From the NCBI RefSeq assembly GCF_008831285.2, contig NC_045139.1:22982412-23046411 (forward strand): a stretch of 64,000 nt of DNA, given 5' to 3'. A program made the position numbers and the translations under genes. The DNA comes from Nymphaea colorata (lineage: Eukaryota > Streptophyta > Magnoliopsida > Nymphaeales > Nymphaeaceae). This document shows, one piece after another, positions 2,301 to 33,500 of this stretch (positions are counted from its first letter, which is position 1; each line of letters begins with the position of its first letter). The notes beneath the pieces were generated by a model. The model ran no database searches and had not been told where the DNA came from. It saw nothing but the letters and a program-made list of their open reading frames with translations.

Positions 2301-5300
2301 ATGGACGTGAATCTGAATGCTCCCCACTCCATGGGCACGACGATTATCGGAATCACCTACGACGGGGGCGTTGTTCTCGGCGCCGACTCTCGGACCAGCA
2401 CTGGTACGCTCATTCTCTTGCAGACGGCTTTTTTCTTCTCGCTTTTGTTCATTGGTTCGTTTCATTTCTTCCTGGTTTTGTACTGAGTTCTTGGTCCCGA
2501 TGATTTATCCTCCTATAGATTCCGGTACGCTTGGGAATTCTGTGTGTTGCGCCATGGTTGATCGAGAATGTAGTCGCTGGTATTGATTTTCGTAGTGGTT
2601 GCATTTGATTGAAGTAGATAAACAATTTGATCAGTTGAAAAATGTAGTTCCTCGTGCGGTATAAATCCACATATTGTTAGGATTACGTCTGGAAATAGAA
2701 TTATGTTTCTTAACAGAATTCATCTCCTTGATGGTGATAAGAAGGTTGTGTTTTTGCGGATACTTACGGATGGTTTTCGAGATTATGTTTTTCTGCAATT
2801 GCTTGATATTTTTACCCGTTTTAATTCTTGATGGCCAAAATGAAGAAATTATTCTCAATTTTGAGTTTGAGAGTGATGAAATTATATCTGTGGCACTAGG
2901 GATGTACGTTGCAAACAGGGCATCCGACAAGATCACGCAATTGACTGACAACGTCTATTTGTGCCGCTCTGGATCGGTAACACTTCTTTCTTTCAATCTT
3001 TATTTGTACCCAAGGTTTGGGCAATGAGCTTCATTATTATTAGTTATGGTTGTAAGAGAGGTAAAAGGATGAAACATCTGGTGATTTTTGAAGCATCGGT
3101 TGCTTCTTTGGAATATAGGTACTTTTTTAGTTTCGCTTTTATATATAAGTTGCCTCTGCTTATCTTAAACTGAATTCTTTTGCTTATAATGTCAGAAAAG
3201 GAAAAGATTGCCCAAAAAATGTTGAATGCCGTGTGATACGTCAGTTATAGAAAAGGAAGATATTACCGAAAAATGCTACATACTTTGTGATGCGTTAGTA
3301 ATAAGGTGATAGAATGGATACAAAATTATCAGACTGTTCTTTTGCCAGTTAAAAACATGCCTAGACACCCGTCTGGGCCAGCGGAGGCACTGGGTGGTAT
3401 TCTAAAGACCTGGTATGAGGAACCTAGGCTGTCCAAATGGAGAATATTAATTTTTTAGAATTTTAACCCTAAAACTTTCTTTTTTCTTTTGTTTAATCTT
3501 CTAGTATGTTGATGGAAGTGGAATTTCCTTAAAGCCCTTGTTTGGCTGTTATCCTATTTTTCTTTTTTTCTCTCTTTATATTTCCCCTCCTTTTTTCTAT
3601 GATTTTTTTTTTTGCAATTTTGTAGCTCATGCATGATTGTGCACACACATGCCCTGCCATACCTCATACTCATTTTTTCAGAATAGCCACATCCAAACCC
3701 GTACCTTTGTATCTGCACTGGTGTATCTGCACTGGCGCCTGCACCCATGTGACTTAGCATGTTGTTTTGCACTACTTATTCTTTTCCTTCTCCTTTTTTC
3801 TTGCAGGCTGCTGATTCACAGATAGTTTCTGATTATGTTCGATACTTTCTTGATCAACACACGTAAGTCTTTTGCAGTCCACCTCTCATTATGCTTATTT
3901 TCCTGGTTAGAACTCTTGTTTTCTTGGAGTAATGACACAAGATTTCAAATTCCGTTCCACAAAGATGGTTTTTTGTTGGGAATATCCTGGAAAATTGGAA
4001 ATAACGATTCATAAACTATACATAACATGTACTAGATACGAATATGTTAGAGGTCACCATTTTCGAAATAGGTTGTTGAAAATGATATGTTTTCATGGGA
4101 AATGTCATGCTAAATCAATGTCATGAAATTGTGCGTAACGTAACCCATACTAGTAGGATCTAAAGTTAGGTACATATCCTGATATGATGCAAAAAAATTG
4201 CACATTTAACTTTTTAAATAAATTTTTTCTAAAAATAAAAACCAGAAAAATATAACATAATAAGAAAATTTGGAAAACTAGGAGAAAATCTCCTTATGAA
4301 AAAACATGGGGTGCATAAAGATAAGAAAAAAAAAAGCATATGCTACCTACAACATGCTCGCTTTCATTTGGAGTAATAAAAAATTGACTACTTAAATTAC
4401 TTAATGGGTACCAGAATAAATAAGTTTTTATGCATTATGCTCTCCTTAAACAATTTAATGGTTATAAAGTTTGAACTTTTTTTAGTTCTGAGTGCAGATC
4501 TAGGCTACTACAAATTTATAACAAAAACCATGAACATTCTTGTTTTTTGTATGAAATTAGCCATAAACTTTATGTTTTTGCTTTAAATTTGTAAAAATGC
4601 CTTTCATGTTGAACTTAATAGTCAGCCTTAAGAAATTTATATAGTCCAAACAAAACTTTTTTTGATAATTTTTACGTTTTGGAAAAAGGGGTGGGGGGTG
4701 CACGCTTGTATTGTAAGTTACAACTATGGTATAGTTACACTCCTGAAACTACTTTAAGCTGTGTATCATATTGTTTCCTTCATATGATATGCTCTGTTAC
4801 GTGTTACAGTGCATCAAATCAGTGATATTTTTGAAATATCAGTCATGTTGGTGAGTATGTGCTCTATCCTGTTCTTTTAAACTGAAGGATGTTACATGGC
4901 TAAATTGCCTATTTGCTGTTAGTTGCTACATAAATTAGTTCTACTCAACCTTATGCTTGGCTATCTGTTTTCATGTTTTCTTATACTGTTACTCATTGGA
5001 CTTAAAGACATACAATCAAGATAACAGTTCTTGATTGCAGAATACAACTTGGACAGCCTGCTACTGTTAAAGTTGCTGCTAACTTAATACGGCTTTTATC
5101 TTACCAAAACAAAGTAAGTGATTTCCCATGATCTTGTAATAAGCTTTATGTAATTTTCATTAATGAATATCTTGGAATTCACCATTTATATCTGTTTCCA
5201 TGTAATCAAGAGCTACCTTTGGTTCCTAGGAGGTCAAGTGTCTAGACAGAACTTGGCAGCCCAAGAGCTACCTTTGGTTCCATGTAATCAAGAGCTACCT

Positions 5301-6916
5301 TTGGTTCCTAGGAGGTCAACCATTTTGTTTACTTGTCTTGGTCTCCCTCCTCATTTATTTTCCTCTTGATCTTCTCATTTCTTTCTTTCTTTCTTGCTGA
5401 TTGGGATGAGGTGCTGCCTAAGCTCCACAAAACCTTTTCACTGGTTATATTGTATAGGTCCCACCTGATGTTTTTGACTAGGTCTGTATGGTTGTGCACA
5501 TGCACAAAAGTACATGCTATTATTTGGATATACAACTTGGTTTCTTGTATTTGCATAAGTAAGAAGTCTTTATTTTGTATCTTGCCGTATCACCCATATG
5601 ACATTCACATCTTATGTGACTCTACCTTTTTTGCTGTCATTTGGTAGAATATGCTGCAAACTGGCCTGATTGTTGGTGGGTGGGATAAGTATGAAGGGGG
5701 ACAAATATTTTCTATACCCCTTGGAGGAACTATCCTGCAACAACCTTTTGCTATCGGAGGTATTCATTAGTATGTTGGCTTGTTAGACCCTCTTTGGCTC
5801 TTTGTGCACTGGCTTTTTTCATTTGAATAGATGCATATAGTTATTGGCTCTCTTTCTTTTCTCTGGGGCTAAACAAGAAGATAAATGTCTTGTTGGAAAA
5901 GAATGGTGAGAAGCACCCAGTAACATGGTTAGAGTTCGATTCACAATCCCGTAACCTGTGATGCTGAGAAAGGCATATCAATGTGATTCTCATTCTTGAG
6001 AGATTTATATTCCTCATGTTGGACATAGCGCTACTCCGAGATTGCCAAAATGTCTACATGGTGAATTTCTGGGACTGTAAGTCTGTAATATATTGATTCA
6101 AAATAGTGGTCCTAAATCCTGAAAACTGCGGATCTTGTACTGTTGCCAAACATATTTGATGAATATCTATGCATTGATTGATTGGTACATGTAGACTGAG
6201 AAAACTAAATCAATAATGACATATTAGAAAGGATCTTATTTTTGGAAGGTCTAGCGGTCCTTATTATTAAATCTCAATGGAGTGTCATGATCTTTGTTTT
6301 AATGCAAATTTTACTTGGTTTCTGTTCTTAGCTCCAATTCCTTTAGGTACTTTTTGTTAATTCCTCATGCATGAATAGAATTCTTGATTTCCCACAACCA
6401 ACTAATCTTGCTTTAAGTAATGGAAGATTGGTTTGAAGTTTAATATGGTCCCAAATAAGTAATAACTATATTAGCCTGTTCACATTGCAGGCCTGAGCTG
6501 TTATCAAATTGTAGTTGTTAGGCACCCGGTATAAAATGGATCGGATCCTCACTGGACTGATCCAAGAGTGCTTATAAATAAGGTCAAAGGACCTTAGTTG
6601 AGGAGGATGAAGCATATTTGAGCGTTTTACCTTCTGGGAAGACCCAATTGAGAGTAAGACCCAGCCCTGCCACTTGTAAAAGTAACCCCTAAAGGACCCT
6701 CATGATGAGTATTTTCAGGATGAACCTCTTCATGTGTATCCTTTCTCAAGGAAGAAGACCTTGAAGAAACAGCTGCTGCAGCTTGAGCTTCTCTAAATCT
6801 TTTCTCATTCCGTCTCTATCTATGTCACATAGGTATGGGTACCGGTGCCGGTTCGGGTATCAGTGCGGGCATGAGTACTGACCATTTTCAAAAAACTTGG
6901 TTGTGAGGGTACGGCC

Positions 6917-6982
<66 letters not shown>

Positions 6983-9900
6983 AATAAGAAATACTTAGAA
7001 AATATGTATAAAAATAAAGAATATACGTCAACATAAACAAATAAATAACATAGAAAATATATATCAACGGCTCTTGCAGCAGTGTGTTTAAGAAACCTAT
7101 GAAAAACTTTAAACATATGGACAAAAAGATGTACAAAGGAGACTTGATAGTGGTATCGTCCAGGAACCCACAGTATCCCCATAGCCAGCATAAGTGTTAG
7201 CTCTCAGTGTCAACCAGCATGGTTCTTGCCAAGAATTGCAAACCTGAGGAACTGTTATCTTCACATCCAACAACTTGTTCACTTAAGGGAGAAACTAAAT
7301 CTGAACTCCCAGGCAATAATGCCATGTGGCCCCTCTAAGGTCATTTCCCAACTCCCCTAGTAGCAGGTCAGCAAACGCATTGCATCCAGATCTGCCTCTA
7401 GCATGTATGACGATTGAGCCTTGGCTATCATGAATTGGCAGCGATAATACCTGCTGCCATGAGAGAAATTTGTGTAACTTCTGCGAAACATGATTTTGGG
7501 CATTTCTAGTTTGGAACCCACACTTGAAGGCACCTTAATGTTCTTGGTCTCCACAATTCTTTCAAATGTGAACCTAGCTCCTCCCAAATGAAACCAGTGT
7601 GATTCATGCAAGATGGTTTCCACTCAGGCACTAATTGAGATCAACGAAATCAATGAGCTCAGCAATAAACGTAATGTCCTGGTTTGAGATGTCCAATTGC
7701 TCCACCATCTTATTGGCAACTGAAAGTGCAATATCGCCATCAAGGTATAACGGGAAGTGGACATCCTTCCCTTGTTGTGTATATCTTTGATCGCTCCATG
7801 TGGCTGCTGCCAAACTCTCCATGACTATGGGTTTGGTTGCAAAATCCCACATTGGTAGCTCTCAACAGAGCCGATCCACACACACTCACACCCCTGCGAA
7901 CCCCAGTTTCGATTAAGGGAAGAACTCAAGTTTCATTTCTTGCTTAGGGTTAATCTCCACTGAGGCAATATACTTATAGTTCCTCACGGGTGGGTTATTA
8001 CAGGATCCACTTATGGGATCAGCGTCCATCTAATGACCCGCTCCTTTCATCCTATTCCTGAAGACAACAAAGAAACACAAACAACCTGAAAATAGAACAA
8101 AACAGAACCAGTAAGAGAACTCTGACAACAAAGACCCAATATGCATAGCTGCTGCCGTAACATGGGGCCTAACAAATATTCCCCCCCAGGAGGAACACCA
8201 TGTCCTCAAGGTGTGAAATCGGGAAATCTCTTTTGTATGTCTTCAGCTAGTTCCCAGGTGGCTGGAATATCCTGGTGGTCTGACCATTCAATGAGCCATT
8301 CCAATTTCCTTCCTGCCCTCTTTAATTACAGACCTGGACCCCAACCTGCGATAGGGTGTATGCTGGGTATTTCACTTAAGGCTGGGGCATTAGCTACTTC
8401 ACTCTGGCTATCTCCTGCGAGCAATACTTAAGCTTTGACACATGGAAGGCAGGATAGCACTCCCTTCTGGTAACTGTAATTCATATGCAAGTGGCCTTAT
8501 ACGCCTCAATATCTTGTATGGACCAACATACTTAGATGCAAGCTTGGCGTGTCCCCTTTTTGAGCTAAATCTTGTCCCTTGAATTGACCTGCATAGGTAC
8601 ACCCAGGACCCCACCTCGTGCTACTGATCCCGATGCCTATTGTTGTATTGAATGACCATGCGGTTCTTGGCTTGCACTAGATGCTGCTTCAGAATCTCAG
8701 GTCATGCAAGATGTCATCGCATCAACGAAGGTGAATTATCAACTGTGGCCTCCTTGGCTATTCCCGGTTGATATTGTCTAATGTCGGGCGGGGGTCTCCC
8801 GTAGACAGCTTCAAAAGGACTAACACTGGTAGATGAGTGCCAACAAGAGTTGTACGAAAGTTCAGCCCATGACAGGTAATCGGCCCATACCTTAGGTCTT
8901 TGGCCAGCAAAGCATCGCAAATAGGTCTCCAAACAATGATTGACAGCTTTCATTTGCCCATCAGTTTGAGGGTGATAGCTTGTGCACATTTGCAGCTTCC
9001 AGCCCTGCATTTGAAAATATTCCTTCCAAAAATTGCTTAGGAACAAGGGGTCCTTATCGCTGGTGATCGATCTAGGCATTCCATGGAGCCTTCCCATACG
9101 ATCTTGGAATGTCCTAGCAACAGATTTTGTTGTGTAGGGATGGGCCAAGGCAATAAAATGGGCGTATTTAGAAAGTCTGTCCACCACCACTAGAATGACT
9201 GACTTTCCATGGGAAGAGGGTAATTCTTCCATTAAATCCATCAAAATGTCTTCTCAAATCTGTTCTGAAATTGGTAAGGGCTGTAAGAACCCTGCTGGCC
9301 TCATCATTTCATACTTGTTGCGTTGGCATGTGTCGCAGTTCTTGATGAAATCCCTGGCCTTCTTTATCCCGGCCAGAACAAGGTGTCACGTATCCTTCGG
9401 TATGTGCCCTCTACCCCATCGTGACCTGCTGCCTTGGTCCCGTGGTAGTGAGCCATGAGGGTCTATGGCAGTTCTGTCTCAGGAGATATGTAGATGCATC
9501 CCTGGTAACTTAAAATAGGGGTCTGTCCACTGGTAACTATAGCAACACAAGGGTTCTGCGTTCAACCGTTTCCTAATCTCAAGAACTGAGGCTGCATTCT
9601 GGTGGTAACGCCTACAAAAGAACTGAGGCTGCATTCTGGTGGTAACGCCTACAATTCCACCTGTATGCTAGACAACGTCATCAACACATGAGCTGGAGTT
9701 ACCTTTGCACGTGATAGGCCATCAGCTGCCAAATTTTATTTTCCTCTTCGATACTGTCTCAAAATCGAAACCCAATAGCTTGGGCATCCACTTTTGGAGT
9801 GTGGTTGTCAAGCCTTGCTATTGCAAACAAAATCGTAAGTTGTTGTGATCAGACAAAATCGTAAGCTGTTGTGATCAGTAAGCACTGTGAAGCGCCTGCC

Positions 9901-12900
9901 CATTAGGTAGTGCTTCCACTTGGTGACCGCAAGAACAACAACTATCAATTCTTGTTCGTAGGCGGATTTGGCAGCAAAAGTCACTCCCATTGCCTTGTTG
10001 AAAAAGGCTATGGGGTGCTATCCTTGGCTAAGGACTATGCCTACCCCCAAATCAGAGGCATCCGATTCTACAACGAAGGTCGTCTGGAAATCAGGCATCC
10101 TTAGCACTGGTGCTGTTGTCATAGCCTCCTTTAGGCCTTCAAATGCACCCTCAGCCCTGTTGTCCCATGAGAACTTTCCCTTCTTGGTCAGTGCTGTTAG
10201 TGGGGCAGCTAGTAATCCATATCCCTTAATGAACTTGCGGTAATATCCTGCCAGTCCCAAGAAGGCTCTTAGTTCCTTCATGGTGGTAAGGCTTTTCCAA
10301 TTTCTCACCGCTGACACTTTCTCATTTTCCATCCTCACTTGGCCATTACTGATCACGTGTCCCAAGTAGGATATTTTTGTATTGCCAAATGAACATTTGG
10401 ACAGCCTTGCCTTAAGCTGGTGCTGGACCAACAAGGACATCATTGCACAGGTGTGCTAGATGTTCTAGCTCATTCTTGCTATAGATGAGTATATTGTCAG
10501 AAAACACAAAGATGTACCTGCATAAAAATGGTCAGAATATATCATGCATGACCAATTGGAAGGTAGCAGGCACATTGGTCAAGCCGAAGGGCATGACCTT
10601 GAACTCATAGTGCCCCTCCTACGTGTAAAATGCTGCTTTCGGCACGTTCTCCTTGGCTACCCTGTCTTGATGATACCCTGAACGCAAGTCTAACTTTGAG
10701 AAGTAAACAACTCTATGTAATTTGTTTAGAACGTCTTCGATGATTGGGATAGAGAATCCGTCTTTCACGTTAACGGCATTCAATGCGCGACGCTAATTTT
10801 TGCCCTTTTTATGAACCAATAGGAGTCGAGAGGCAAACAGACTGTGACTTGGTTGAATGATGCCCTACTTGAGCATCTCCTGCACCAAACCTTCCAAGGC
10901 CTCCCTCTGCATTCGATTGTACCTGTAGGGCTTCAGTCTCACAGAGAGGCCAATTCGATTGTACCTGTTGATGTTGCCTGTAGAAACAGTAAAAGCGAGA
11001 AGAACACAGATGTAACGTAGAAACCCATCAACAAGAGAGAGAAAAACCACAAGTGGTGAGGAGGTCTGGTGCCCACTAGCCGCCAGACTCTTTCTCTTTT
11101 AAAACTTCATTCACTCCAGAAATTAGGGTTACAAGTCTTTAAGTAAGGCCCAACAAGGGCTACAAGGTGGATCGGGTCTGGACCAGTCCCAAGACCCATC
11201 TTTACATGCTTCAACACTCTCCCTCAAGTTGGGCATACATATCAAACATGCCCAACTTGGATACATTTCTCTCAAAAGAAGTTGAAGATAGAGCTTTAGT
11301 CAGAACATCAGCGGTTTGGTTTTCAGATTTCATGTAAGGTAAGATTCTCCCGTAGCAATAGCTCTATACTCAGCCTCTGCATTAGATCGAGAACACACAT
11401 CTTGCCTCTTGCTTTTCCAGATAGCAAGGTTTCCTCCCAAATAGACACAGTACCCTGAGGTAGACCTTCTAGTATCAGCACAACCTGCCCAGTCAGTATC
11501 GGAATACCCTTCGATCTCAACAGGCTCTTGTTTCACATATAAGAGCCCTTTGCCTGGATTCCTCTTTAAATAACACAATATTCTGTCCACAGCCTTCAAG
11601 TGTGCATCAGTCGGGGCATGCATAAATTGACTCAGTACATTCGCAGCAAAAGTGATATCTGGTCGAGTGAGGGTAAGATAAATCAACTTCCCAACAAGAC
11701 GTTGATATCTTCCTTTGGCTTCTTCACAAAGCAACTCCCCATCTCTAAGGCTCAACTTGTGCCTAGCATCAAGAGAAGTAGAAGCTGGTCTACACCCCAG
11801 CTTACTGGTCTCCTCCAATAGATCTAGTGTGTATTTCCGTTGATTTAACACAAGGCCGGTACTGGACCTAGCAATCTCAATACCAAGAAAGTACCTCAGT
11901 TTACCAAGATCCTTGAGATCAAATTCGACAGCCAGTAACACTTTTAGCTTTGTGATTTCATCCTTATCATCACCTGTAACAATCATGTCACAGCCAGTAA
12001 CACTTTTATCTTTGTGATTTCATCATTATCATCACCTGTAACAATCATGTCATCCACATAAACAAGTAACAGAGTGACTTTCCCTTCTTTCCTCTTCACA
12101 AACAGAGTGTGGTCTCCATTCCCTTGATTATAGCCATAATGTTGCATTACTCGTCTGAGTCGTTCGAACCATGCTCTGGGCAATCTGAGGCCATATAAAG
12201 CTTTTTTTAGTTTACAACATTTTTCTGGTTTTTCATATCCTGGGGGCATACGCATATACACCTCCTTTTCGAGATCGCCATTGAAAAATGCATTCTTAAC
12301 ATCCAGTTGGTACATCCTCCACTCCTTCATCACAACTAGGGAAATAACAACTCTAACTGTCTTCATTTTCGCAACTGGAGCAAAGGTCTCTAAGTAATCA
12401 ATCCCATATTTCTGACTAAACCTTTGGCCACAAGACGAGCTTTGTATCATTCAACACTTCCATCTGGTTTGTATTTGATGGTGTAGACTCACTTGGATCC
12501 AACCAAGTGAGTTGCCTCAGGGGTCTTTACAACTTCCCATGTCATGTTTCTTCTCAGGGCTTCCATTTCTTCTTGCATCGCATCAACCCACTTGGAATCA
12601 CCTTGAGCTTCAGCAATAGTCTTGGGAATCACACCCAAAGAAAAAGAAGATACAAAACACTTGTAATCTTTGCTCAGTTTAGAATAAGATATGAAATTAC
12701 CAATAGGGTGTTGAGTATATGACCTGACACCCTTTCTAAGAGCAATGGATAAATCTAGGGCTGAACACGAGTCGAGTCGAGCCCGAGCTCGGTCAGCTTG
12801 AACTCGGCTCGACTAAGTAAGACACGAGCTCGACTCGGCTCGAGCTCGAATATAGCTCGACTATCCTGACTCGAACTCGACTCGATAGTCACTTGTCGAG

Positions 12901-15900
12901 CTCGAGCTCGACTCGATTAAGCTCGATAAGCTCGTTTACAGAAATCCATACTTGTTGAGCTCGACTAAGGCTCGAATACGTGAGCTCGATTAAGGCTCGA
13001 CTAAGGCTCGAACCGATATTTTAATGACGAGCCGAGTTGAGCTTTAATGAGTCCACTTGAGTGAACTCGAACTCGACTTGATTAGTTAAACGAGTCGGCT
13101 CGTGAACTCGAGCTCGACTCGTTTAACTAATGAAGCAGCTCGAACTCGCTTATGAGTCGAGCTTAAACGAGTCGAGCTCGAGTAGCTCGACTCGTTGTGC
13201 AAACCTAGGTAAATCTTCACTTTTAGCCTCTGCCTGAGTACCTTCAACTGACATCTCTTGGGCACGACTTGGGTCATCCAGGGAAGGAGTAGCATTAGGA
13301 TTTGGAGTAGGATTTTTGTCACCAGAGGGCATCGCTTCGTCAGCTTCATCAGTGGGTCCTGCTGCAGGCGACTTTCGCCTAGAGTAAACCTGCCCAAACA
13401 AATGGTCATGTCCCTCCTTATCCACAGTTGAACATCTATCATCCTCATTGTGCTCTAGAGGGTTAGTAACCTCAATCTCTTCCTTCTTGTATTCCAAAAA
13501 ATCTCTAAACTGAATCTCTTGATTGGGAGAATACTCTTCTCTCATTGTAGACTTTTCCCCTGAAGAGAATTCTCACCAAAATATGAAGCATGTTCTAGGA
13601 AGGTGACATCTTTGGTAACATAGGCATGACCTGTGGAAGGGTCTCGACACTTATATCCTTTTTGAGTGGGGGAATAACCTAGAAAAACGCCCTTAACTGA
13701 CCTAGGATAAAGCTTTTTAATATTAGAACTGTGATTGTGAATAAAACAAACACATCCAAAAACTCTAGGTGGAGGAGAGAAAGGTTCATAACTCCCCGGT
13801 AACATAGAGTGAGGGGTCTGCCCATTCAACACACGACTAGGCATACAGTTAATTAGATAAGCACTGGTCAACACAATAACCCCCAATATTTTTTTGGAAC
13901 ATGACGTTGAAAAAGAAGTGCCCGAGTCATATTCATTTGGTGATTCTTTCGTTCAGCAACTCCATTTTGATGAGGAGTATAACTACAAGAAGTCTCATGA
14001 ACAATTCCCTTTTTTCGAAAGAAGCTATCAACAGACTGGCACGTATACTCACAAGCATTGCAAGACCGAAAGGTCTTAACAGATGCTCCATATTGAGTTT
14101 CCACATAAGCAATGAAAGTCTCTATGACAGTAGGAACTTCAGTACGGTCTTTCAGCAAATAAACAATGGTGTTACGAGAACAATCATCTATAAAGGTGAT
14201 AAAATATTGAAAACCATGACAAGAAGGAATTCCCGAAGGCCCTCATACATCAGAGTGAATCATGGCAAACACATCGTTAGAACGATGGATAGACACAGGG
14301 TATGAAGCCTGAACATGTTTGGCCAGGTGACAGATATCACAAGACACCATAGTCATATCTAACCTGCAACACAGATCAGGAAATAACTGTCTTAGAATTC
14401 CAAAAGGAAGGTGTCCAAGGCGCTCATGCCAACGCAGAATCGATTGAAGGGAGTCCTCTCTACTCTTCGTTGTTTTGCTGGCAGTTGTCATGAGGGCAGT
14501 AGCAGCACGCATAGGTAAACAATATAGCCCTTCAGAAGAACAAACCAATCTCAATCCTCTTCCCTGTCACCAAGTCCTACAGAACACAACGATCAACAGA
14601 AAAAATAAGTTCACAATTCAACTCTTTTGTAATCTTGCTAACCGACAAGAGGTTCAAGGGAAGATGAGGAACATGTAGAGCATTGTGGACTAAGAACTTG
14701 TTCAAAAGTGAGAGACTCCCTTTTCCAGCCATAGAAATAAAGGAACCATCGGCAAGAGACACCTGTTCCTTTCCTGACAAAAGCTTATACCCATGAAATA
14801 CCTTATGATCGCCAGTCATGTGGTGGGTAGCACCACTGTCAATAATCCACTCCCCCATATGAGAATCCGCCACCACGTCGGGTTCACCAAAGCATAAAAG
14901 GCCTAACCAAGAAACAGGTACAAAGAAGGAACAACAAACGGCAACCGGAAACAGCAGACGGGACAATGTTGGGTGGTGACGCAAGGAGCTGACAGGTCAG
15001 TGTGACAGATCTCCACGGGCAGGAAGAAAACAGCGGCAACCGACACACACCAGACGACGACAAACAGCAAGGGAGGCATCAGGCAACAGCAACAGAGCAC
15101 AAAATGGCGGGCGACAGTGAGCGCTGAGCGATGGACGACGCTAGGCATTGACAGATGCTGAGCGACGGGGACTTAGGGTGACGGCAGAGAAGGCGGAGCT
15201 GTGCTGCACTGGTGATGGAGCACGACGGGCGTGAGCTGGGAAACGATGCTGGGCTGCAGCCAGAAACCAGCAGCAGGAGCAACTGGAATCGGCAGCAACA
15301 ATGGAAGCGGCGGCAGCAGCGGCGGCGGCGGAATAAGAGCAGCGAGCGATGGAAAGGTCAGGGCCGGAACTTCACGGCCGGCAAAAATTTCCACAAACTA
15401 GTCACAGCTCTGATACCATGTAGAAACAGTAAAAGCGAAAAGAACACAGATGTAATGTGGAAAACCCTCAACAAGAGGGAGAAAAACCATTGGTGAGGAG
15501 GTCTGGTGCCCACTAGCCGCCAGACTCTCTCTATCTTAAAACTTCATTCACTCCAGAAATTAGGGTTACAAGTCTTTAAGTAAGGCCCAACAAGGGCTAC
15601 AAGCTGGACGGGTCTGGACCCAGACCCGGTCCCAAGACCCATCTTTCATGCTTCAACATTGCCCAATTCTGCTACAACTTGCAGAAGAACGAGTCTTTTG
15701 GGCACAGTTCGTTTAAAATAGCTATGGGGTAAGAACCACTAATGGCACACACTTTTGCTGCCCTTGAAAAGGGAAGGCCGACATTTACCTAATAGTTTGT
15801 CAGGGACTGGCAGGAGTAGACAGAACTCCCCAAGGCATTCTTGCATAAGGCTGCCAAGAAGATGAAAAATGGGCTGACAAAGATTGATAACTTGTCGAGT

Positions 15901-18900
15901 TTCGAGTTGAAGACTAGGTGCTCGTGAAGCTGTATCCTAATCGCACGGGTATTTTTCTTAGGCGACACTGTGTTTTGATCTGGCAGTATGAAGGGTCATT
16001 CACTATGATCAAGAAGATTGAGAAGCTAGCATACAAGCTAAATCTGTTGCCAGATTTCCATCCAGTATTTTACATATGCAACTTGAAACCCTTTTATGCT
16101 GATGTTGAAGATCAAAAGAGGAGCCAATCTTGCAAAGAGCACCTTCAGGCAAGCGTGCAACAGACAAGCAGTTGGAGCAAATTCTTGCACAAGATCAACT
16201 ATCTCGGCATGCCGAAAAAGTATTTTGTCAAGTAGGCAGATGAGGAGCAGCCTATGTGGGAGTATGTGTTTAAGATGAAGCAGTGCTACTTAGAAGAAGT
16301 TAGGGCATACCACAACGCAGTTGGCACTGAGGACGACACATGATTTGAAGGGAGGAGCTTGTTTTCCTGTGTTCGTGTCTGTATAGTCTTTCTTTTGTTT
16401 ACAAGGCTCATTTGTATATGCTTGTTCACTTGTAAGGGTGTACCCTCCCACCTGTCTAAGTGTCATGTTTGAGATTCCTTTCTTTGGGTGTTCGGCATAA
16501 GGATCCTTGTATGAGTCTTCAGGCATATAAGTAAAGTCCAGTCAATCTCCTTGTTTGCCTTCTCTTGTGATGTAGTACGTTTCTAAGTGAATGAAACAAC
16601 TCATTATAAGTTATTCTCCTCTTTATGTCTCTTTATGCACTGTTTGTTTTCGAGTTATCTGTGCACTCGCTTACCCCATTAAGCTTGTGCTGGTTTGAAG
16701 AGCTGTTGGACTGCATGGGGCGTGAGAACAGTCGCCCCGTGACGGACATGATTAACAAGAAATTAGAGACAATAAAGAAGAGAGAGAGAGAGCAGTTTCT
16801 CCTCAATGAACAAAAACTTAGTCCCATTGCATTCTTTCATTAACTCAGCCTTTATATCATGTGGCTGAGTAAAGTGGGTCTAGCATGGGGACCAACATAA
16901 TTTATTACATCGTGACCTTACCCAGGGCTATTATTTACTTTTATGTTTTTAACTTACTATTTTCCATTTTTTTATTTTTATAATTTTTTAATTTTTTTAT
17001 TTGTTGAGATTTTCCTTAGAGTTTCTAAGAAATACAATTTTGCAGTATTATATCCAAGAAATACCTAGTCGTATAATACCCATAAACGATATATGTGACA
17101 ATGCGTTCTTGATATTGGGAATTAGGATCTATCTTAGGAGCTGGGATTCTATGTCTGTGCTGTCGAGATCCTTGGTCCTGGCTATCGGAATTCCTATTCA
17201 TGGGCATCGAATTTGATGACTAAGAATCAGTTATGTCCTGAGAAATTAAGAACTAAGATTTCCTTTTCAGAAAATTCCCATTTCTAGAGTGTGCAATTTC
17301 TTTGCGAATGAATTAAGATTCTGATGTTTCTGCTTCCTGCTTTTCTTAGTATGTCAGGTAACTATGCGGTAACCTGCCATAAACACCTGCAAGAATTCTT
17401 AACTTGATATGAGTGAAAAGGAGTGATTCAAGTGAAAAGAGCATTAAAGAATGAAGACTTGAAAAGGTAGCATTACTAAGAGGTCGTTTGATTATTGTCC
17501 ATTGGGACAGGATGTCCTATCCATCACACTACTGTCTTGTTTTTATGGACAATGATGTTTTTTGTCCATCGTTTGATGATTTTAGGAACAGAACACTATG
17601 TTTCTTCTTGTCGAGTGTTTGTTTCACATATGTTTGTTCTGTCCGTCCTGTCTAGCGTTTGTTTTTGTTCTGTCTGATCTATTCATTATATCTGATGTTT
17701 GTGTCTTCCATGGTATGTTCTTTTTGTTTTGTTTGGTGTTTGTTTATGTTTAGTTTGAACTGACTGTTCTATCCAGTGTTTGTGTTTTCTATAATCAGTT
17801 TTGGTTATTATATTTGTTTTGGCCGCTATATGAGGACAAGAATATCTTATCTTTTGAACATGTTATATCAAAACAAGTAGAAAATTCATAACAACTAACA
17901 ACATGCTATATGCAAATCAATACATTCGATAACACGAAACTAAAGAAGACGTTTTGATTTGTTAGAATTTAGAAATAATATCTATTAATAAAACAGTTAA
18001 TGTGATTACAAACAGTTAATGTGATTACAAAACATATTCAACTGCGTTGTGGTTGCACAAAGGAGAAGTGGCTGGACAGTTTGGCCTATCAATTACTCCA
18101 AAGCTAACAGAAGCGAAAGGAAGAGTTCTTCATCCTCCATATCTGGTCAAGATAAAAGAAAGATAAAAGAATGGAGTTAGATCAAAACTGCCAGTGGAAA
18201 CTGTCGCAGTATCAGCTATATGATCCCAAGGCAATCAATTTCTGGGCTATGGTCATTTTTGTGCCATCCGACAGTTCCAAAAGCACCAATCAGATTTCTC
18301 AGTTTGCTCAAAAATTGACTTCGAGATGCTATGAAGAATTGCTGCAATATACCGATGCCAAATTCACTAAAAAGGACCATAAAATCATTCAAATTCAAGA
18401 CAACAGTCCCCTCGATTCATCGCCACATGACATAGCAAGCAATGCTTCAAAGTCTCCAAATTTGGCATTAACAACAAAGAAACATAAGTGATGGTAAAAT
18501 GTATTAGTGACACTTTTTCTTCATGTTGAAGCTCCACAATTGCACGGACGGATCAATTCAACATCAGAGTTGTTGTGGGCCACTGTCGCTTCAACTTCGT
18601 GGCCCTATATATGTTAGTGTCAATGCTTCGGTTATCAGTTTTACTGATTAACAACATGCTATATGCAAATCAATACATTCGCTTTGATTATTGTCCATTG
18701 GGACAGGATGTCCTATCCATCACACTACTGTCCTGTTTTTATGGACAATGATGTTTTTTGTCCATCGTTTGATGATTTTAGGAACAGAACACTATGTTTC
18801 TTCTTGTCGAGTGTTTGTTTCACATATGTTTGTTTTGTCCGTCCTGTCTAGTGTTTGTTTTTGTTCTGTCTGATCTATTCATTCTATCTGATGTTTGTGT

Positions 18901-21691
18901 CTTCCATGGTATGTTCTTTTTGTTTTGTTTGGTGTTTGTTTATGTTTAGTTTGAATTGACTGTTCTATCCAGTGTTTGTGTTTTCTATAATCAGTTTTGG
19001 TTATTATATTTGTTTTGGCCGCTATATGATGACAAGAATATCTTATCTTTTGAACATGTTATATCAAAACAAGTAGAAAATTCATAACAACTAACAACAT
19101 GCTATATGCAAATCAATGCATTCGATAACACGAAACTAAAGAAGACGTTTTGATTTGTTAGAATTTAGAAATAATATCTATTAATAAAACAGTTAATGTG
19201 ATTACAAACAATTATGATTACACATAAATTACAAATAAAAGCAAACACTAAACTCATTCAGTCAAATGCACAAACACTTTATATACATCCAAATGACCAA
19301 AAGAAAAGGGAAACAGAGAGAAAATCCTTAAAGAAATGCACCTACTAAAAAAAGAGGCTCGTTTCAATGAAATGAGAAAAAATGACCCACCGATAAGCCC
19401 TACAAGCTGGACTGGATGACAAAAAATGAAGTGAGCGAGAAAGAGGGATGGAGACTCACTTGCAACTGCAATACTGTCCAAGATTGACCACATCCCATTC
19501 ATAGTCAAACCCTAGGTGACAACTGCAGAAAAAGGGGCCAATAGAGGAAGAGGGGGAAGGAAGAAGAAGGTAGTAAGAGGAAGAGAGAAAGAGGAGAGAG
19601 CAATAGAAAATGAGAGGGGAAGCAGCAAGAGGGTGGGATGGAGGGGCAGGGGTGAAATCGGGGGAGCTGCAACGAGGTCGGGCGACGGCGTTCCATAGTA
19701 AACCACGGAACACTAAGGAACAGAACAAAATATTTATATCGTCTGCTCCGTGTCCCATCTGTCTTGACCGTTCCGCGTCTGTTGTTTGTGTCATCATGGT
19801 AAATTCAGAACGCGAGCTGTCCATTCCGTTTGGTAGGATGGTTTTTCAAACGACCTCTAAGGTTATAAGTTGGTTGGAGATACAATTCTTGATAAGAAAG
19901 AATGGGATGGACTTCTACTCAACTTCACGTGATTGGTTCTGGGTTGATGATGATGATGAATTTCCCATTATTGCTCTCTTGTTGTCTTTTGCCTCATCTG
20001 GCATATGCCATTTGCTCATTTTCATCAAAGTAATGCCATTCAATTCAAAGTTGTGAGTACTTTGTTCAAGATTTCGCTTTGCGAGTGCTTTCTTAAGGGA
20101 CACATTGAATGGCATTAGTGCTTACCTTTGAGTCCAATTCAAGCACTCCTTTCAATCTTCTCTTGAAGGTCATGTCACGTCATAACAAAGCCTTCTTTTT
20201 CATAATTAGAGCCTAGTGCTTTTGATAAGAAAGCACTCTTTGGCTTCCCTATAGTCCATCATGTCATGCCATTTTGATAAGTCCTACGGTTCACTTTGCT
20301 CGTGACATGACGCCTTTCAAGGTCAGCATTGTAATTTGCCTATTGGCACAAAATTCAGGGACAAAGGTCAAGCAAAGCAACGTCATGTCCTTTTGATAAG
20401 CCCACAAAGCACTCACAAAGCATAGGGCTTTGCCAATGCTGACAAGGCCCCTGGGCCTACTGGGACAAATTCAACAGCCATCTCTGAGTGTCTGAAGAGG
20501 TTTAATGACAAGGTATTGACATTTGATACTTTATGGTTCATCTTGCAGGATCTGGCTCCAGTTACCTGTACGGTTTCTTTGACCAAGCTTGGAGGGAAGG
20601 GATGACAAGGGACGAAGCTGAGGTATGCGTAATCTAATTCTGTAAACTATGGTCGTGCCTTGTGTTCTTTTGGAAAAACTTTTCACCTCAGTCATTTGCA
20701 GTTATAGGAAAAATCTAGTATTGCTTATGTTGGAAGTTGCCACTTAAATGTAGATATGTACCTTGTGCTATGTCTTCTTCGTCCCTTCCTGCCTTGGTAT
20801 CAATTATCAAATTACTGAACCAGAACGTCTTTCCTATAGAGAAGGCAATCTGTCCTTTCTACTGCTATGCTTGTGTTGTGAATGTCTAGATCTGGCCCTT
20901 TGATTGCCCAGTGGCCCTCCTTTAAAGTCACGGGGATCCATCATGACCCCATTAGACTTGCGTAGAACTTAGGCCACTGGTTGTTTTCCAGTTTTTGTAA
21001 TATTAATCAACAGTTGTCCCCCTTTAGCATGAGGCCAATATTGGCTTGTGCATGTGAATTTAAGTTGTTGAAGAACAATGTCTTTTATCAACTGTTCCAC
21101 TTTAATCCATCGGCAACCTTATTTCATTATGGAACTGGTCACTTTGCAAGATCAACATTTGTACCCCTTGTGCATACCAAGTATGTCTAAAAAAAGGTTC
21201 AACTTAGTAAGATCAGGAATCTGTTCTTTGAAAGGAAAGTTGCAGTTCATTCAGGTAAAAATACATCCAACAGGGCAGCTATTGGTGAAATGAGCTCACT
21301 GTCATACTTTCTAACGTTCCATACTTAACTGCAGAATTTAGTGGTGAAGGCTGTGTCTCTGGCCATAGCTCGAGATGGAGCTAGTGGGGGAGTTGTGCGC
21401 ACCGTCACTGTGAGTGTTTTCCTCACAATCATGGCTTGTATTACTGCATCTTTAAGCACCCCTTTTCAGTATCTAGATTTGCTTGTTAAAGCTTTGTTAC
21501 TCCTGTTATCTAGTGCCCATGACATTTTATTGTTTAGTGGATTTATTTGCTTATGGCCATGATAACATTTTCTTCGTCCTCTTTGTCAGATAAACTCTGA
21601 GGGCGTTGCAAGAAAATACTATCCAGGAGACATCCTCCCACTATGGCACGAGGAGATTGAGGCAACCGGCTCTCTGCTGGATTTGCTTTGA
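2301..21691 (+). CDS. PBA1: 20S proteasome subunit beta type-6 (beta1, caspase-like), 8 exons
   Basis: This is a catalytic beta1 subunit of the 20S proteasome core, which cleaves after acidic residues in cytosolic and nuclear protein turnover. Exons are 2301-2403, 2900-2976, 3807-3862, 5041-5113, 5648-5759, 20549-20622, 21335-21409 and 21590-21691. All introns are GT-AG, phases join cleanly, and the product is 223 aa. A 12-residue propeptide ends in HSMG, so Thr13 becomes the N-terminal nucleophile. Numbered from that Thr, Asp17, Lys33 and Arg45 (the acidic P1-pocket residue of beta1) fall where the family has them, in GADSRTS, ASDKITQ and LCRSG. Later motifs [20 protein letters not shown] and [12 protein letters not shown] are intact. 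The start is the first ATG in frame, fitting the short plant propeptide. Intron 5 is 14.8 kb and full of transposons. Plant homologues, as I recall them, run about 10 residues longer; here a TGA stops the protein just before that tail. Identity is very secure; functional status of the tail is open. Confidence 0.95.
6918..6979. repeat. (AT)n microsatellite, about 62 bp
   Basis: Uninterrupted AT dinucleotide run. It follows a short GGTAC/GGTGC-rich segment (6835-6915) of a dispersed repeat family also seen near 25.4 kb. Confidence 0.95.
7200..7852 (-). pseudogene. Fragment of a WNK-type protein kinase gene (C-terminal regulatory region)
   Basis: On the minus strand, 7852-7631 reads through a segment with [20 protein letters not shown] followed by a [18 protein letters not shown] stretch. 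This matches the conserved domain after the kinase in plant WNK kinases (FPF..DTALSVA.EMV.QLD...DV..IAE.ID). After a frameshift the next frame gives VPEWKPS, the usual continuation of that domain. Farther down (7600-7200) further reading frames are broken by stops. No kinase catalytic motif is present. The fragment begins exactly where the neighbouring gypsy LTR ends (about 7853), so the retrotransposon probably inserted into it. It cannot encode a working kinase. Confidence 0.6.
7853..8174 (-). repeat. 3' LTR of the minus-strand gypsy remnant
   Basis: On the minus strand a G-run polypurine tract (8190-8175) is followed directly by TGTTAGGCCCC at 8174, a typical LTR start. A candidate CA end is at 7854-7853, giving about 322 bp. 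TATA-like AACTATAAGTATATT occurs inside. The second LTR is absent, so the borders are partly inferred. Confidence 0.55.
9581..9879. repeat. Two short tandem duplications in the gypsy remnant
   Basis: A 36-bp word is repeated at 9581-9616 and 9618-9653 (period 37). A 26-bp word is repeated at 9828-9853 and 9854-9879. Neither period is a multiple of three, and the second breaks the RNase H frame after LTDHNSLRF. Confidence 0.85.
10979..11216 (-). repeat. Copia 3' LTR (238 bp)
   Basis: Nearly identical to 15419-15658, differing by a small number of substitutions and short indels, which suggests a fairly recent insertion. The minus-strand purine tract lies immediately outside it at 11217-11230. 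Confidence 0.9.
11928..12051. repeat. 62-bp tandem duplication inside copia RT
   Basis: Copies at 11928-11989 and 11990-12051 differ at only a few bases. Since 62 is not a multiple of three, the RT frame is shifted; the YVDD-downstream segment (VTGDD..DEITK.KVLL) is encoded twice in different frames. Confidence 0.9.
12757..13209. mobile_element. Nested non-autonomous element rich in GAGCTCGA words
   Basis: About 450 bp of repeated GAGCTCGA / ACTCGAGTCG words interrupt the copia pol region between integrase and RT. TAAATCT occurs at both borders (12750-12756 and 13210-13216), an apparent 7-bp target duplication. The ends are imperfect inverted repeats: AGGGCTGAACACGAGTCGAG on the left, and AGGTTTGCACAACGAGTCGAG-like in reverse on the right. 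No coding capacity is seen. Related sequence occurs near 61.2-61.6 kb and 63.18-63.5 kb. Superfamily is uncertain (hAT-like MITE or SINE-like). Confidence 0.65.
15419..15658 (-). repeat. Copia 5' LTR (240 bp)
   Basis: Partner of the LTR at 10979-11216. The initiator tRNA-Met primer-binding site lies directly inside at 15407-15418, which fixes the element's orientation as minus. Confidence 0.9.
15659..16343 (+). mobile_element. Plus-strand Ty3/gypsy remnant: integrase end with chromodomain-like tail
   Basis: The plus strand reads [20 protein letters not shown] at the start, then [12 protein letters not shown], then from about 15918 [26 protein letters not shown] and [18 protein letters not shown]. 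This is the integrase C-terminal region of plant gypsy elements. A chromodomain-like tail follows (FVK[19 protein letters not shown]), with TAG at the expected chromodomain Trp, and ends at the TGA at 16341-16343. Several internal stops make it non-functional. Its orientation is opposite to the gypsy remnant at 7853-10978, so the two are different copies. Positions 16344-16620 may be its 3' LTR (a purine-rich stretch comes first and TATA-like words follow), but no partner LTR is present. Confidence 0.8.
16716..16843 (+). pseudogene. Possible retrotransposon gag start
   Basis: An ATG at 16716 begins [20 protein letters not shown], continues KKRERE, and stops at 16843. It follows the presumed LTR-like sequence of the plus-strand gypsy remnant. 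Position and charge pattern suggest a gag start, but I recognise no diagnostic motif. Confidence 0.25.
17487..19210. repeat. 528-bp direct repeats flanking the Argonaute fragment
   Basis: Copy 1 is 17487-18014 and copy 2 is 18683-19210. The offset is 1196 throughout with no indels, and I count only about seven substitutions. A 33-bp internal word at 17896-17928 recurs at 18649-18681 directly before copy 2, and again inside copy 2. Confidence 0.92.
18068..18491 (+). pseudogene. Captured Argonaute gene fragment (linker 2 / start of MID), AGO7-like
   Basis: 18068-18157 translates as [20 protein letters not shown] then [11 protein letters not shown], matching the segment after the PAZ domain in plant Argonautes (QFGI.V...MT...GRVL.PP.L). 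A stop and one-base frame change follow. Then 18171-18491 gives [26 protein letters not shown] and [12 protein letters not shown], matching the (R/Q)WN....I..WA.I.F linker and the following SRC segment. A later [10 protein letters not shown] resembles the AGO7 kind of MID region. There is no PIWI catalytic triad and no start region. It is a non-coding capture inside the TIR element; the subfamily is a judgement from memory of AGO7. Confidence 0.65.
20032..20116. repeat. Short fold-back (13-bp arms)
   Basis: AATGCCATTCAAT at 20032-20044 pairs with ATTGAATGGCATT at 20104-20116. Repeated words such as CATGTCATG and GATAAG continue to about 20460, so this may be the edge of a small decayed element. 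Confidence 0.5.
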
Positions 21692-30556: not shown

Positions 30557-33500
30557 TTAGTGCTCAAATGATCCGGCAGAGGGGTTGCTGGAGTTTTGAT
30601 CACATTGACCCCTCCATGCATGACCACCATCTGAACTACTACAGGCCTGATTCTGCAAGACGTTATTTGTAATCTCACCATCCAAGCTCATCTGTTGAAC
30701 TTCTGTAGGTGATAGAATCCTGATGCATCGTACACAGTTCACAAATTCCCTGAGGCATATGACCAACACATCAGTTGCAGCTGGTGAGTGAAAAATATAC
30801 TCAAGTTATTGATTAAGACCCATATAACTGGAGAAAGAACCGTCACTAGGGTAGTTAGGTTGTGTGATACATCAACGCAACTCATTAGTTGCCACTAACA
30901 TTAGAGAAACTCCAATTGCAAACGTAATTGAACTTTAACCAAACTTCAAATGCAGGTTCTACCTGAAGACTCAGTGGGACTAGTTCCTACTGTTAACTAA
31001 TTCATATTTGAAAAAGGAAGAAAGATGAAAGGATCATCAAACTTACTCCCAAGGATCATCACCAACGAGTAGGACATCATTTTCGTGATCCACATAGACC
31101 AGTTTCCAACCAGTACTTTGAGGATCCTCAAGCTGGCCTTCTATTCCAAACATTCGTGCAAGATCATGCTGGAGCTCCTCATATCCTTTGTAGCGACTAA
31201 CATCTATGGATCTGCCTACTGCACCTCGCTTGTAAACCTTCAGAGCAAAAGAATCGAGTCAGCCATCATCAGCTCAAAATAATAGATATGTACATATTTT
31301 GTACTTAGAAACAAACCTTTGTGAATGTTCTCATTCTCTGATACTGTGGTTGAATCACCGACCCTCTGTTTAAGAAGTTGCCATCATTGATACTTGAATC
31401 CACAGAAACTCTTGAATTAAAAGCCATTGAAGGGACACCATATGGCTGGGAAACCACGGAGGATGACAATTCAGGTTGAATTTCCTTTGGGTTATTGAAA
31501 TTATTCACAATGTTCCCCATTGAAATGTGGCTTTGAAAATCATTTGCAGAGGTCAAGCTTCTTGTAAGCAATGGATCAGGTGAAATAGGGACGCTTAATT
31601 GGTTATCAATGTTGATTCCGAACAGGACACCATTTCTAGGATCATTCTGCACGTCCCCAACGTCTGATGTATTTCTGAACATCATGGGTGAGAGGTTGTA
31701 GGAATTAGGCATAAAGTTCTGCTGAAGAGGCCCATCTGTCTGAGAAATGCAGACAGAAGTTCCAGAAGATGATGAGTCGAGGTAATCTATCTGCATGGGA
31801 TTCGTGTGTATCTGAGAACTAACTTGGTTATGTGCCTTTGTGAGAGGCACTGATAGCTTGGCTTCAGTTCTTGGAAGTTCTTTGACCAAGTTGTTTCCAT
31901 TTGACATAGCATCCAAGACACTGGGACTCAGAACGGTTGCCACAGGTTGCCCGATTTCCTCTAACAAACCAATACTTCGACTACTCTTTGTGATGGTTGA
32001 CTGATTAGCTAAAGGAGCACTGTTTGTGGAAGGTGATGTAGAACAAGATGGCACATCATCTGTGACTACGGATGGTGTCCCATTGGCCATTACACTATTA
32101 GTAGACACTGACATAAAATTAGTTGCTGATGGCAGCGCCAATCCAGCCAAGTCCATCAACGGGCTTGGTTGCTGCTGAAATTTTTGCTGCAGAGGTTGTA
32201 AAGTTTGGACCCATGTCTGTGAGTTCTTTGCAGCATCCTGCTGTTGTTGCACCGGTGTCACTTGCTGGGTTTGCTGTTGAGCCATCAACTGCACTTGTGA
32301 AAGTTGTGGTGTGTCCAACAAAAGCTGCCTTTGTTGCTCAAGCAACTGGGTTGTTTGAGACTGTGTGACAGTAGATTGTGACATCAGCGACTGTTGCTGA
32401 AGTTTTTGCAATAATTGCAACTGAATCTGTTGTTCCGACTGCTGCAACTGCTGCATGTGTTGTGGTAGTTGCTGGACGGCTTGGTGGGTCAGTGCCTGTT
32501 GTTGCAAAAGGATGGTTTGGACGGGGATCCTGTTTTGCTGCTGGCTCTGAACATTTATTTGTTGAACTGGCTGCTGCTGCTGCTGGTTTTGCATTATACT
32601 AGGTATCCCCTGGGACTGCAGAAGCAACTGTTGCTGTTGCAGGTGACTTGGAGACAGGAGTTGAGATTGTAGAAGTTGTGTTTGGGCTGGAGTCTGCATA
32701 AAAGCTTGGCTAGCCAAACATTGTTGCTTCTGCTGCTGCTGTTGATTAATTTCATCTATTTGCTGCAGTTGCTGCTGAGGACGATTTACTGCCCCAGGCT
32801 GGCTTACTGTGGGTGGTAGCTTCTGCAATTGATCAACCTGTTGTGGTTGCTGCAGCTTTGGAGGGTTGAGCTGGAAATTGTTCTGCTGCAACATCTGGGA
32901 TTGCAAGCCCAGTTGTCTTGACACATCAGCTGTGTTCCCAAGGCCTTGTAGTAGGGGTGAAAATGGTGATGCTAATTGCCGTAAGTAGTCAGGCTGGAGG
33001 GCCATATTTGGAAGGTGCGAGTTTTGCTGCATGCTCATCCACTGAACCAGGCTTAAGCCAGGGATGATGGAATTCTGAGTTTGAGAATCCTTTATGCAAA
33101 TTTCCTCATTCAGCCATGGCATAGTTCTTTTAAGAAGGCTCTCCATATCAGACTCGTCATCTGCAGAAGCAGTTCTACAGAAGTTTGGTTAGTCATATCA
33201 TTTCCCCTTCTACTAAGATATCTACCCTCTCTTATATATGCTGGCTCCTGTGGTCCAGCAAATAAGAACAAGTACTTCAGTGTTTGGGAGTTTGAAAACT
33301 CAGTCCGGATGTGGCTCCAAAAAATCACACTTGAAGGCCTAGAATGACTGATCATCATGTCCATGAAATATATTGAAGTACATCCAAGATACATAGATCG
33401 TAGCTTCTTCATGACGTACCTGGCATGCCTGGTTGTCTAGGACGCTTTGATCTGAAAAATGGAGGTGGACAAATGAAGAAAGGAGCAGCAACAGGTTCAA

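What the first reader, a model, noticed from the sequence alone, without database searches (positions are those of the whole stretch)
18068..18491. Argonaute gene fragment captured inside a TIR transposon
Seen: two adjacent frames with GQFG....GRVLHPP and QWK....INFWAM.IF...SRC patterns, inside perfect 12-bp TIRs with TAA flanks. Known: such patterns mark the linker/MID start of plant Argonautes, and TIR elements can capture gene pieces (Pack-type elements). Inference: a Pack-PIF-like element has picked up part of an AGO7-like gene. Small RNAs from it could match the parent gene of the silencing machinery itself.
Basis: partly seen in the sequence, partly recalled or inferred. Interest (0 to 1): 0.7.

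Follow-up and report, generated by a model that had tools for sequence, protein, structure and literature searches.

The report
Transposon carrying a dead Argonaute-gene scrap
A small plant jumping gene has picked up a short, no longer translatable piece of an AGO2-type Argonaute gene; gene pick-up by this class of element is already known, and any effect on the plant's silencing machinery is untested.

Summary
In detail: window 17480-19857 has perfect 12-bp inverted repeats and TAA flanks, and 18040-18335 is a piece of an Argonaute gene (86% DNA identity, E 7e-93, to contig C14). The donor is AGO2/3-like, not AGO7: the two C14 genes carry a D-D-D triad, the C14a exon fits Arabidopsis AGO2 best among plant MID domains in the PDB, and the fragment's pieces are 68-80% identical to C14 proteins but 30-33% to this genome's AGO7-like gene. 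A second copy on C4, elsewhere and with its own TAA flanks, keeps about 140 bp of inferred donor intron, so capture was from DNA. Both copies are dead as protein. The window copy looks like a tandem fusion: 17487-18029 recurs at 18683-19222 at 98%. It is a Pack-PIF-like element. A different repeat unit (four copies, C5/C1) holds a piece of the same exon. Small-RNA effects are possible (54-nt perfect match to C14a) but untested.

The parts
17477..17479 (.). left target-site duplication TAA
17480..17491 (+). left TIR GAGGTCGTTTGA, 12/12 with right TIR
17480..17937 (+). element 5' region A, shared wholly or in part with many places in the genome (listed matches 75-85%)
17938..18031 (+). start of the 3' region (b1), a second copy of 19134-19225
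18040..18335 (+). Argonaute (AGO2/3-like) fragment: about 20 bp of inferred intron end plus start of the last exon (linker 2 / start of MID); inferred splice acceptor AG reads AA at 18059-18060; reading frame broken
18331..18458 (+). segment F2, read as transposon sequence; matched in C4 and C9; overlaps the AGO end by the 5 bp ATGAA
18457..18650 (+). segment F3, read as transposon sequence; followed closely by the start of region B on C9 and C2 (three places), without AGO
18649..18681 (+). 33-bp copy of the tail of region A (17896-17928, 100%)
18683..19222 (+). second copy of 17487-18029, 98.0% over 543 columns (8 mismatches, 3 gaps); lacks the first 7 bp of the TIR
19127..19857 (+). element 3' region B up to the right TIR
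19846..19857 (-). right TIR TCAAACGACCTC
19858..19860 (.). right target-site duplication TAA

Best explanation
A non-autonomous PIF/Harbinger-type element (Pack-PIF) took up, from genomic DNA, the end of the last intron and the start of the last exon of an AGO2/3-like gene. SHOWN: TIRs and TSDs; a second AGO-bearing element at another site sharing the AGO/F2 junction; donor sequence upstream of the exon kept in the C4 copy; broken reading frame in both copies; a 98% duplication inside the window copy. INFERRED: the composite moved by transposition after the capture; the right AGO/transposon junction was made at a 5-bp microhomology (ATGAA); the window copy was later rebuilt by fusion of two same-orientation elements of one family, giving A-b1 / AGO-F2-F3 / A'-B, so that only the outer TIRs remain; an unlinked transposase mobilises it. 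It makes no Argonaute protein. If it does anything, it would be through small RNAs, which is untested.
For: Perfect TIRs and TAA TSDs. The C4 element (L024 rc 3492-5855; C4:2536046-2538407) has the same AGO/F2/F3 order and AGO/F2 junction, TAA on both sides and TIRs 10 of 12; in a comparison that held 79 bp of left and 93 bp of right window flank, similarity stopped within 8 bp left of the element and at the right TAA. AGO homology in C4 reaches upstream of the exon: L025rc 3823-4235, 85%, last exon inferred to start at 3965. TAA or TTA stands beside the TIR at one readable end each of L002, L003, L005 and L006. The window copy needs two frames, the C4 copy has in-frame stops. Duplication 17487-18029 / 18683-19222 at 98.0%. 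Pack-PIF elements in maize, fused tandem elements in rice Pack-Mariner, and one model for all such superfamilies are described in PMC8903248 (section 9 read). Another family member, L003, holds a laccase-like piece (PF07731, E 1.2e-8) between its A and B regions.
Against: No PIF transposase was located; that search did not complete. No empty site was found; the flank search did not complete. About 200 bp before the AGO piece in the C4 copy are of unknown origin, so the left junction of the capture is not resolved. The donor itself is not identified: in a tree of eight rows the transposon copies fall outside the C14a+C14b pair with weak support, and over the right part the window is closer to two of the four C5/C1 copies (95.1, 94.5%) than to C14a (92.7%), C14b (90.9%) or its sister element C4 (89.6%); the other two C5 copies give 91.7 and 90.2% over 132 columns. 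The 33-bp extra piece at 18649-18681 is not predicted by simple tandem fusion. The C9 and C2 loci with F2/F3 show no complete TIR element in what I fetched, so calling F2/F3 transposon sequence is an inference.
Confidence: 0.85

Rival explanations
1. Template switching during repair of an excision gap (not fusion of neighbouring insertions) inserted the AGO piece and duplicated the A-b1 segment.
For: Shared letters at the AGO/F2 junction (ATGAA at 18331-18335), a 33-bp patch of A tail at 18649-18681 and a second 22-bp unit at 18010-18031 look like a patchwork of copied pieces.
Against: Two same-orientation element copies with the inner TIRs missing are what the published tandem model predicts. 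The microhomology was judged by eye, without a chance control.
Confidence: 0.4
2. The AGO fragment is a processed (cDNA) copy that later landed in the transposon.
For: None found; the last exon is open over this stretch, so the exon part alone would not tell.
Against: C4 keeps about 140 bp and the window about 20 bp of donor sequence upstream of the inferred splice acceptor.
Confidence: 0.03
3. The element produces small RNAs that act on the AGO2-like genes.
For: Perfect 21-mers: window 39 of 276 to C14a and 30 of 276 to C14b; C4 copy 27 and 13 of 394; C5 copy L027 42 and 4 of 270; longest window match 54 nt. [quoted passage not shown]
Against: No small-RNA, methylation or expression data were available. 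No inverted AGO pair was seen in or beside the window element.
Confidence: 0.1
4. Chance or low-complexity similarity, no Argonaute relation.
For: Pfam matches are under the gathering scores; with the two frames phmmer listed no Argonaute in the PDB up to E 10.
Against: DNA match of 296 bp at 86% to a locus with ArgoN, ArgoL1, PAZ and Piwi domains.
Confidence: 0.01

Closest known systems
Pack-PIF / Pack-TYPE elements of maize and rice (PMC8903248)
   Same: PIF-type ends, internal host-gene piece, more than one member; fused tandem structure as described there for rice Pack-Mariner
   Different: donor here is an AGO2/3-like gene; another plant; only two AGO-bearing copies seen; transposase source not found
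AGO2/AGO3 clade of plant Argonautes (donor lineage)
   Same: C14 genes have the D-D-D triad and an RG-rich N-terminus; C14a MID is closest to Arabidopsis AGO2 among plant MIDs in the PDB list
   Different: the captured piece covers about 98 codons, is frame-broken and is not a gene
AGO7 clade
   Same: same Argonaute superfamily; here too linker 2, MID and PIWI lie in one open frame
   Different: 30-33% identity to the genome's AGO7-like gene against 68-80% to C14; D-D-H against D-D-D

Membership tests
PIF/Harbinger non-autonomous element | 3-bp TWA/TTA/TAA target-site duplication (definition recalled) | tested here: met
   TAA on both sides in window and C4; TAA or TTA beside one end in L002, L003, L005, L006
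PIF/Harbinger non-autonomous element | terminal inverted repeats | tested here: met
   12/12 in window, 10/12 in C4
PIF/Harbinger non-autonomous element | related autonomous copy with a DDE_4-type transposase | not tested
   search asked five times, never answered; frames of 110 aa or more in the C9, C2 and C4 loci were printed but not scanned against Pfam
Pack-TYPE element | host-gene piece between the TIRs | tested here: met
   AGO piece 18040-18335
Pack-TYPE element | composite present at more than one site | tested here: met
   window on C2 and C4, different flanks
Pack-TYPE element | built by fusion of tandem insertions | tested here: inconclusive
   A-b1 / AGO-F2-F3 / A'-B layout fits; no intermediate found; 33-bp patch unexplained
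AGO2/3 origin of the fragment | best match to an AGO with a D-D-D triad | tested here: met
   (triad read by eye); meaning of the triad from PMC5407642 passages
AGO2/3 origin of the fragment | donor-lineage MID closer to Arabidopsis AGO2 than to other plant MIDs | tested here: met
   C14a exon: 'argonaute 2' MID chain 4g0m 64.9 bits, 'argonaute 1' and 'argonaute 5' MID chains about 46 (species recalled); no AGO7 chain in the list; C14b was not searched
AGO7 origin of the fragment | best match to the genome's AGO7-like gene | tested here: not met
   30-33% against 68-80%

The most novel reading that the evidence does not exclude
Pieces of one AGO2-like exon have been taken up by two different mobile or repeated units (a Pack-PIF and a C5/C1 repeat unit); small RNAs from them act on the AGO2-like genes, and the genes' MID segment escaped by amino-acid-only change (C14a against C14b: 0 synonymous and 21 non-synonymous differences in codons 42-98, against about 29 and 61 in codons 99-478; Fisher p 0.0016).
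Probability: 0.05. Interest if true: 0.65.

Novelty: new member of a known kind. Interest (0 to 1): 0.3.

Why it matters
Plant transposons are silenced by small RNAs loaded into Argonautes (established knowledge), so a transposon that holds a piece of an Argonaute gene could couple its own silencing to that of the machinery. Here the precondition (perfect 21-24-nt matches) is met, so the idea is testable with small-RNA libraries. The captured pieces also serve as outgroups that show how the living AGO2-like genes have changed.

Tried and rejected
AGO7 as donor: rejected. cDNA capture: rejected because donor sequence upstream of the exon is kept. F2/F3 as further captured host exons: this was my reading; I dropped it because F3 is closely followed by the start of region B at loci without AGO, and the translation around F2 on C9 has no long open frame; a host origin of F2 is not strictly excluded. 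C5/C1 loci as the parent gene: rejected, since they are four copies of a long repeat unit with only about 290 bp of AGO and no long coding frame noticed around it (those frames were not scanned against Pfam). PDB search with the two window frames listed no Argonaute. Paper searches for an earlier report: 'Pack-TYPE + transposon + Argonaute' gave 2 papers and 'Pack-MULE + Argonaute gene' 1, seen as listings only; 'Argonaute + captured + Helitron + gene fragment + AGO2' gave 0; 'Nymphaea colorata + Argonaute' gave 4, listing only. This is too thin to say that it is not in print.

Full report
WHAT IS THERE. The window lies at G000:C2:22982412-23046411 of a 408-Mb genome in 783 contigs. The element spans 17480-19857, with TIRs identical over 12 of 12 bases and TAA on both sides. 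Over the outer 61 bases the two ends agree at 25 positions, the 12 TIR bases included. A search with the whole element gave 47 matches; of 391 candidates only 40 were scored, so counts are lower bounds. A search with the C4 element gave 57 matches, 40 of 371 candidates scored.

THE ARGONAUTE PIECE. A search with 18025-18660 gave 16 matches from 14 candidates, all scored. By place, sites matching the Argonaute part are eight: the window; C4:2537014-2537437; C14:3086166 (C14a) and C14:3071419 (C14b); and four repeat-unit copies, three on C5 and one on C1. Five further places (C2 three times, C9, C4:17.8 Mb) match only F2 or F3. Window 18040-18335 is 86% identical to C14a and 85% to C14b.

DONOR LINEAGE. 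C14b has open frames for an RG-rich N-terminus (by eye; no Pfam match), ArgoN-ArgoL1-PAZ, and ArgoL2-MID-Piwi. C14a shows a frame break in the PAZ region, by eye. A Piwi search (36 matches, 51 of 51 candidates scored) listed three near-full-length matches without stops: C11, C14b and C14a. C11 carries YYAHL (D-D-H), C14 YYADL (D-D-D); the name AGO7 for C11 is my reading, partly from memory. The two window pieces are 68% identical to both C14 proteins (first piece) and 73-80% (second), against 33% and 30% to C11. The genome's other Argonautes, in many exons, were not compared as protein. In the PDB the C14a exon scores 64.9 bits with the MID chain named argonaute 2 (4g0m) and about 46 with the MID chains named argonaute 1 and 5 (that these are Arabidopsis proteins is recalled). 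Longer chains score higher because they cover PIWI too: 'Protein argonaute-2' up to 294 bits and 'Protein argonaute 10' 286.5. I conclude AGO2/3-like.

CAPTURE FROM DNA. In the C4 copy the homology runs over L025rc 3823-4235. The last exon is inferred to start at 3965, after TTGTACAG (sequence), so about 140 bp are intron. The window keeps about 20 bp, and its acceptor AG reads AA. Exon borders are inferred from sequence; no RNA was available.

NO PROTEIN. Between the two halves of the window piece the alignment to C14 is off by a net 4 bases, so two reading frames are needed. The C4 copy has in-frame stops.

STRUCTURE AND MECHANISM. The C4 element runs: about 660 bp of 5' region shared with other family copies, about 200 bp of unknown origin, AGO, F2, F3, B. 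The window element runs A-b1, AGO-F2-F3, a 33-bp patch of A, then A'-B. A-b1 and its second copy are 98.0% identical (8 mismatches, 3 gaps in 543), while A is about 81% identical to the C4 copy. The duplication is thus probably younger than the AGO capture, whose AGO/F2 junction both elements share. Fusions of neighbouring same-orientation elements are described for Pack-TYPE elements (PMC8903248, section 9). Template switching remains a rival, because of the 33-bp patch and the ATGAA overlap.

RELATIONSHIPS OF THE COPIES. Over the right part (18172-18335) the window is 95.1% identical to the C5 copy L027 and 94.5% to the C1 copy (163 columns), 92.7% to C14a, 90.9% to C14b and 89.6% to C4 (164 columns), and 91.7 and 90.2% to the other two C5 copies (132 columns); over the left part it is 84.4% identical to C4 and 78.9% to each C14 gene (128 columns). 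A tree of these eight rows groups C14a with C14b (97/98) and leaves the other copies outside with weak support (66/72). The simplest reading is capture from an ancestor of the C14 pair or from a lost paralogue.

A SECOND CARRIER. Four repeat-unit copies (C5 three times, C1) hold about 290 bp of the same exon. Pieces of the units are 86-99.5% alike between copies. One C5 copy also holds a family A-like stretch about 10 kb from its AGO piece, inside a part that the C1 copy lacks, so contact between the two families is not excluded. What kind of repeat this is was not settled.

RESULTS AGAINST OR LIMITING. Pfam scores are under gathering. No transposase and no empty site could be sought, because the genome search did not complete. 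Naming the superfamily rests on TIR form and TSD length, partly recalled. F2/F3 as transposon sequence is an inference. The small-RNA idea has only its precondition shown.

A SIDE RESULT. Between C14a and C14b, codons 42-98 of the last exon (the captured MID stretch) show 0 synonymous and 21 non-synonymous differences, codons 99-478 29.3 and 60.7; codons 1-98 together 2 and 23. Fisher p is 0.0016 with rounded counts for 42-98 against 99-478, and 0.015 against numbers of sites. Neighbouring 57-codon windows score equally high, so the excess is not confined to the captured stretch, and C14a may be a pseudogene. Polarised by the majority of four transposon or repeat copies (window, C4, L027, L028; the two other C5 copies were left out), 22 of 23 assignable changes in codons 1-98 are non-synonymous and 2 are not assignable. 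This may be selection, relaxed constraint or chance.

VERDICT. A real Pack-PIF-like element with an AGO2/3-like, not AGO7-like, fragment; ordinary in kind, with an unusual donor.

Noticed in passing
L003 about 1296-1460 (locus C2:17104396-17108001): A member of the same element family holds a laccase-like (PF07731, E 1.2e-8) piece between its A and B regions; its 3' TIR was not found.
   Followed up: partly
L027 5190-5479 and L028, L034, L035: A long repeat unit (three copies on C5, one on C1; pieces 86-99.5% alike) carries about 290 bp of the same AGO exon, in L027 bounded by TTTTTTTAG and CTGCAG.
   Followed up: partly
L025 and L026 last exon, codons 42-98: Two AGO2-like loci about 15 kb apart on C14 differ there by 21 non-synonymous and 0 synonymous changes.
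   Followed up: partly
L025rc about 3150-3290: C14a shows a frame break in the PAZ region where C14b is open (by eye).
   Followed up: no
window about 31100-33188, minus strand: Glutamine-rich open frame and a PB1-like start of what looks like an auxin response factor gene (named by eye and recall), about 11 kb from the element.
   Followed up: no
window 8717-14996, minus strand: Pieces of Gypsy- and Copia-type LTR retrotransposons (named by eye from open frames) near the element.
   Followed up: no
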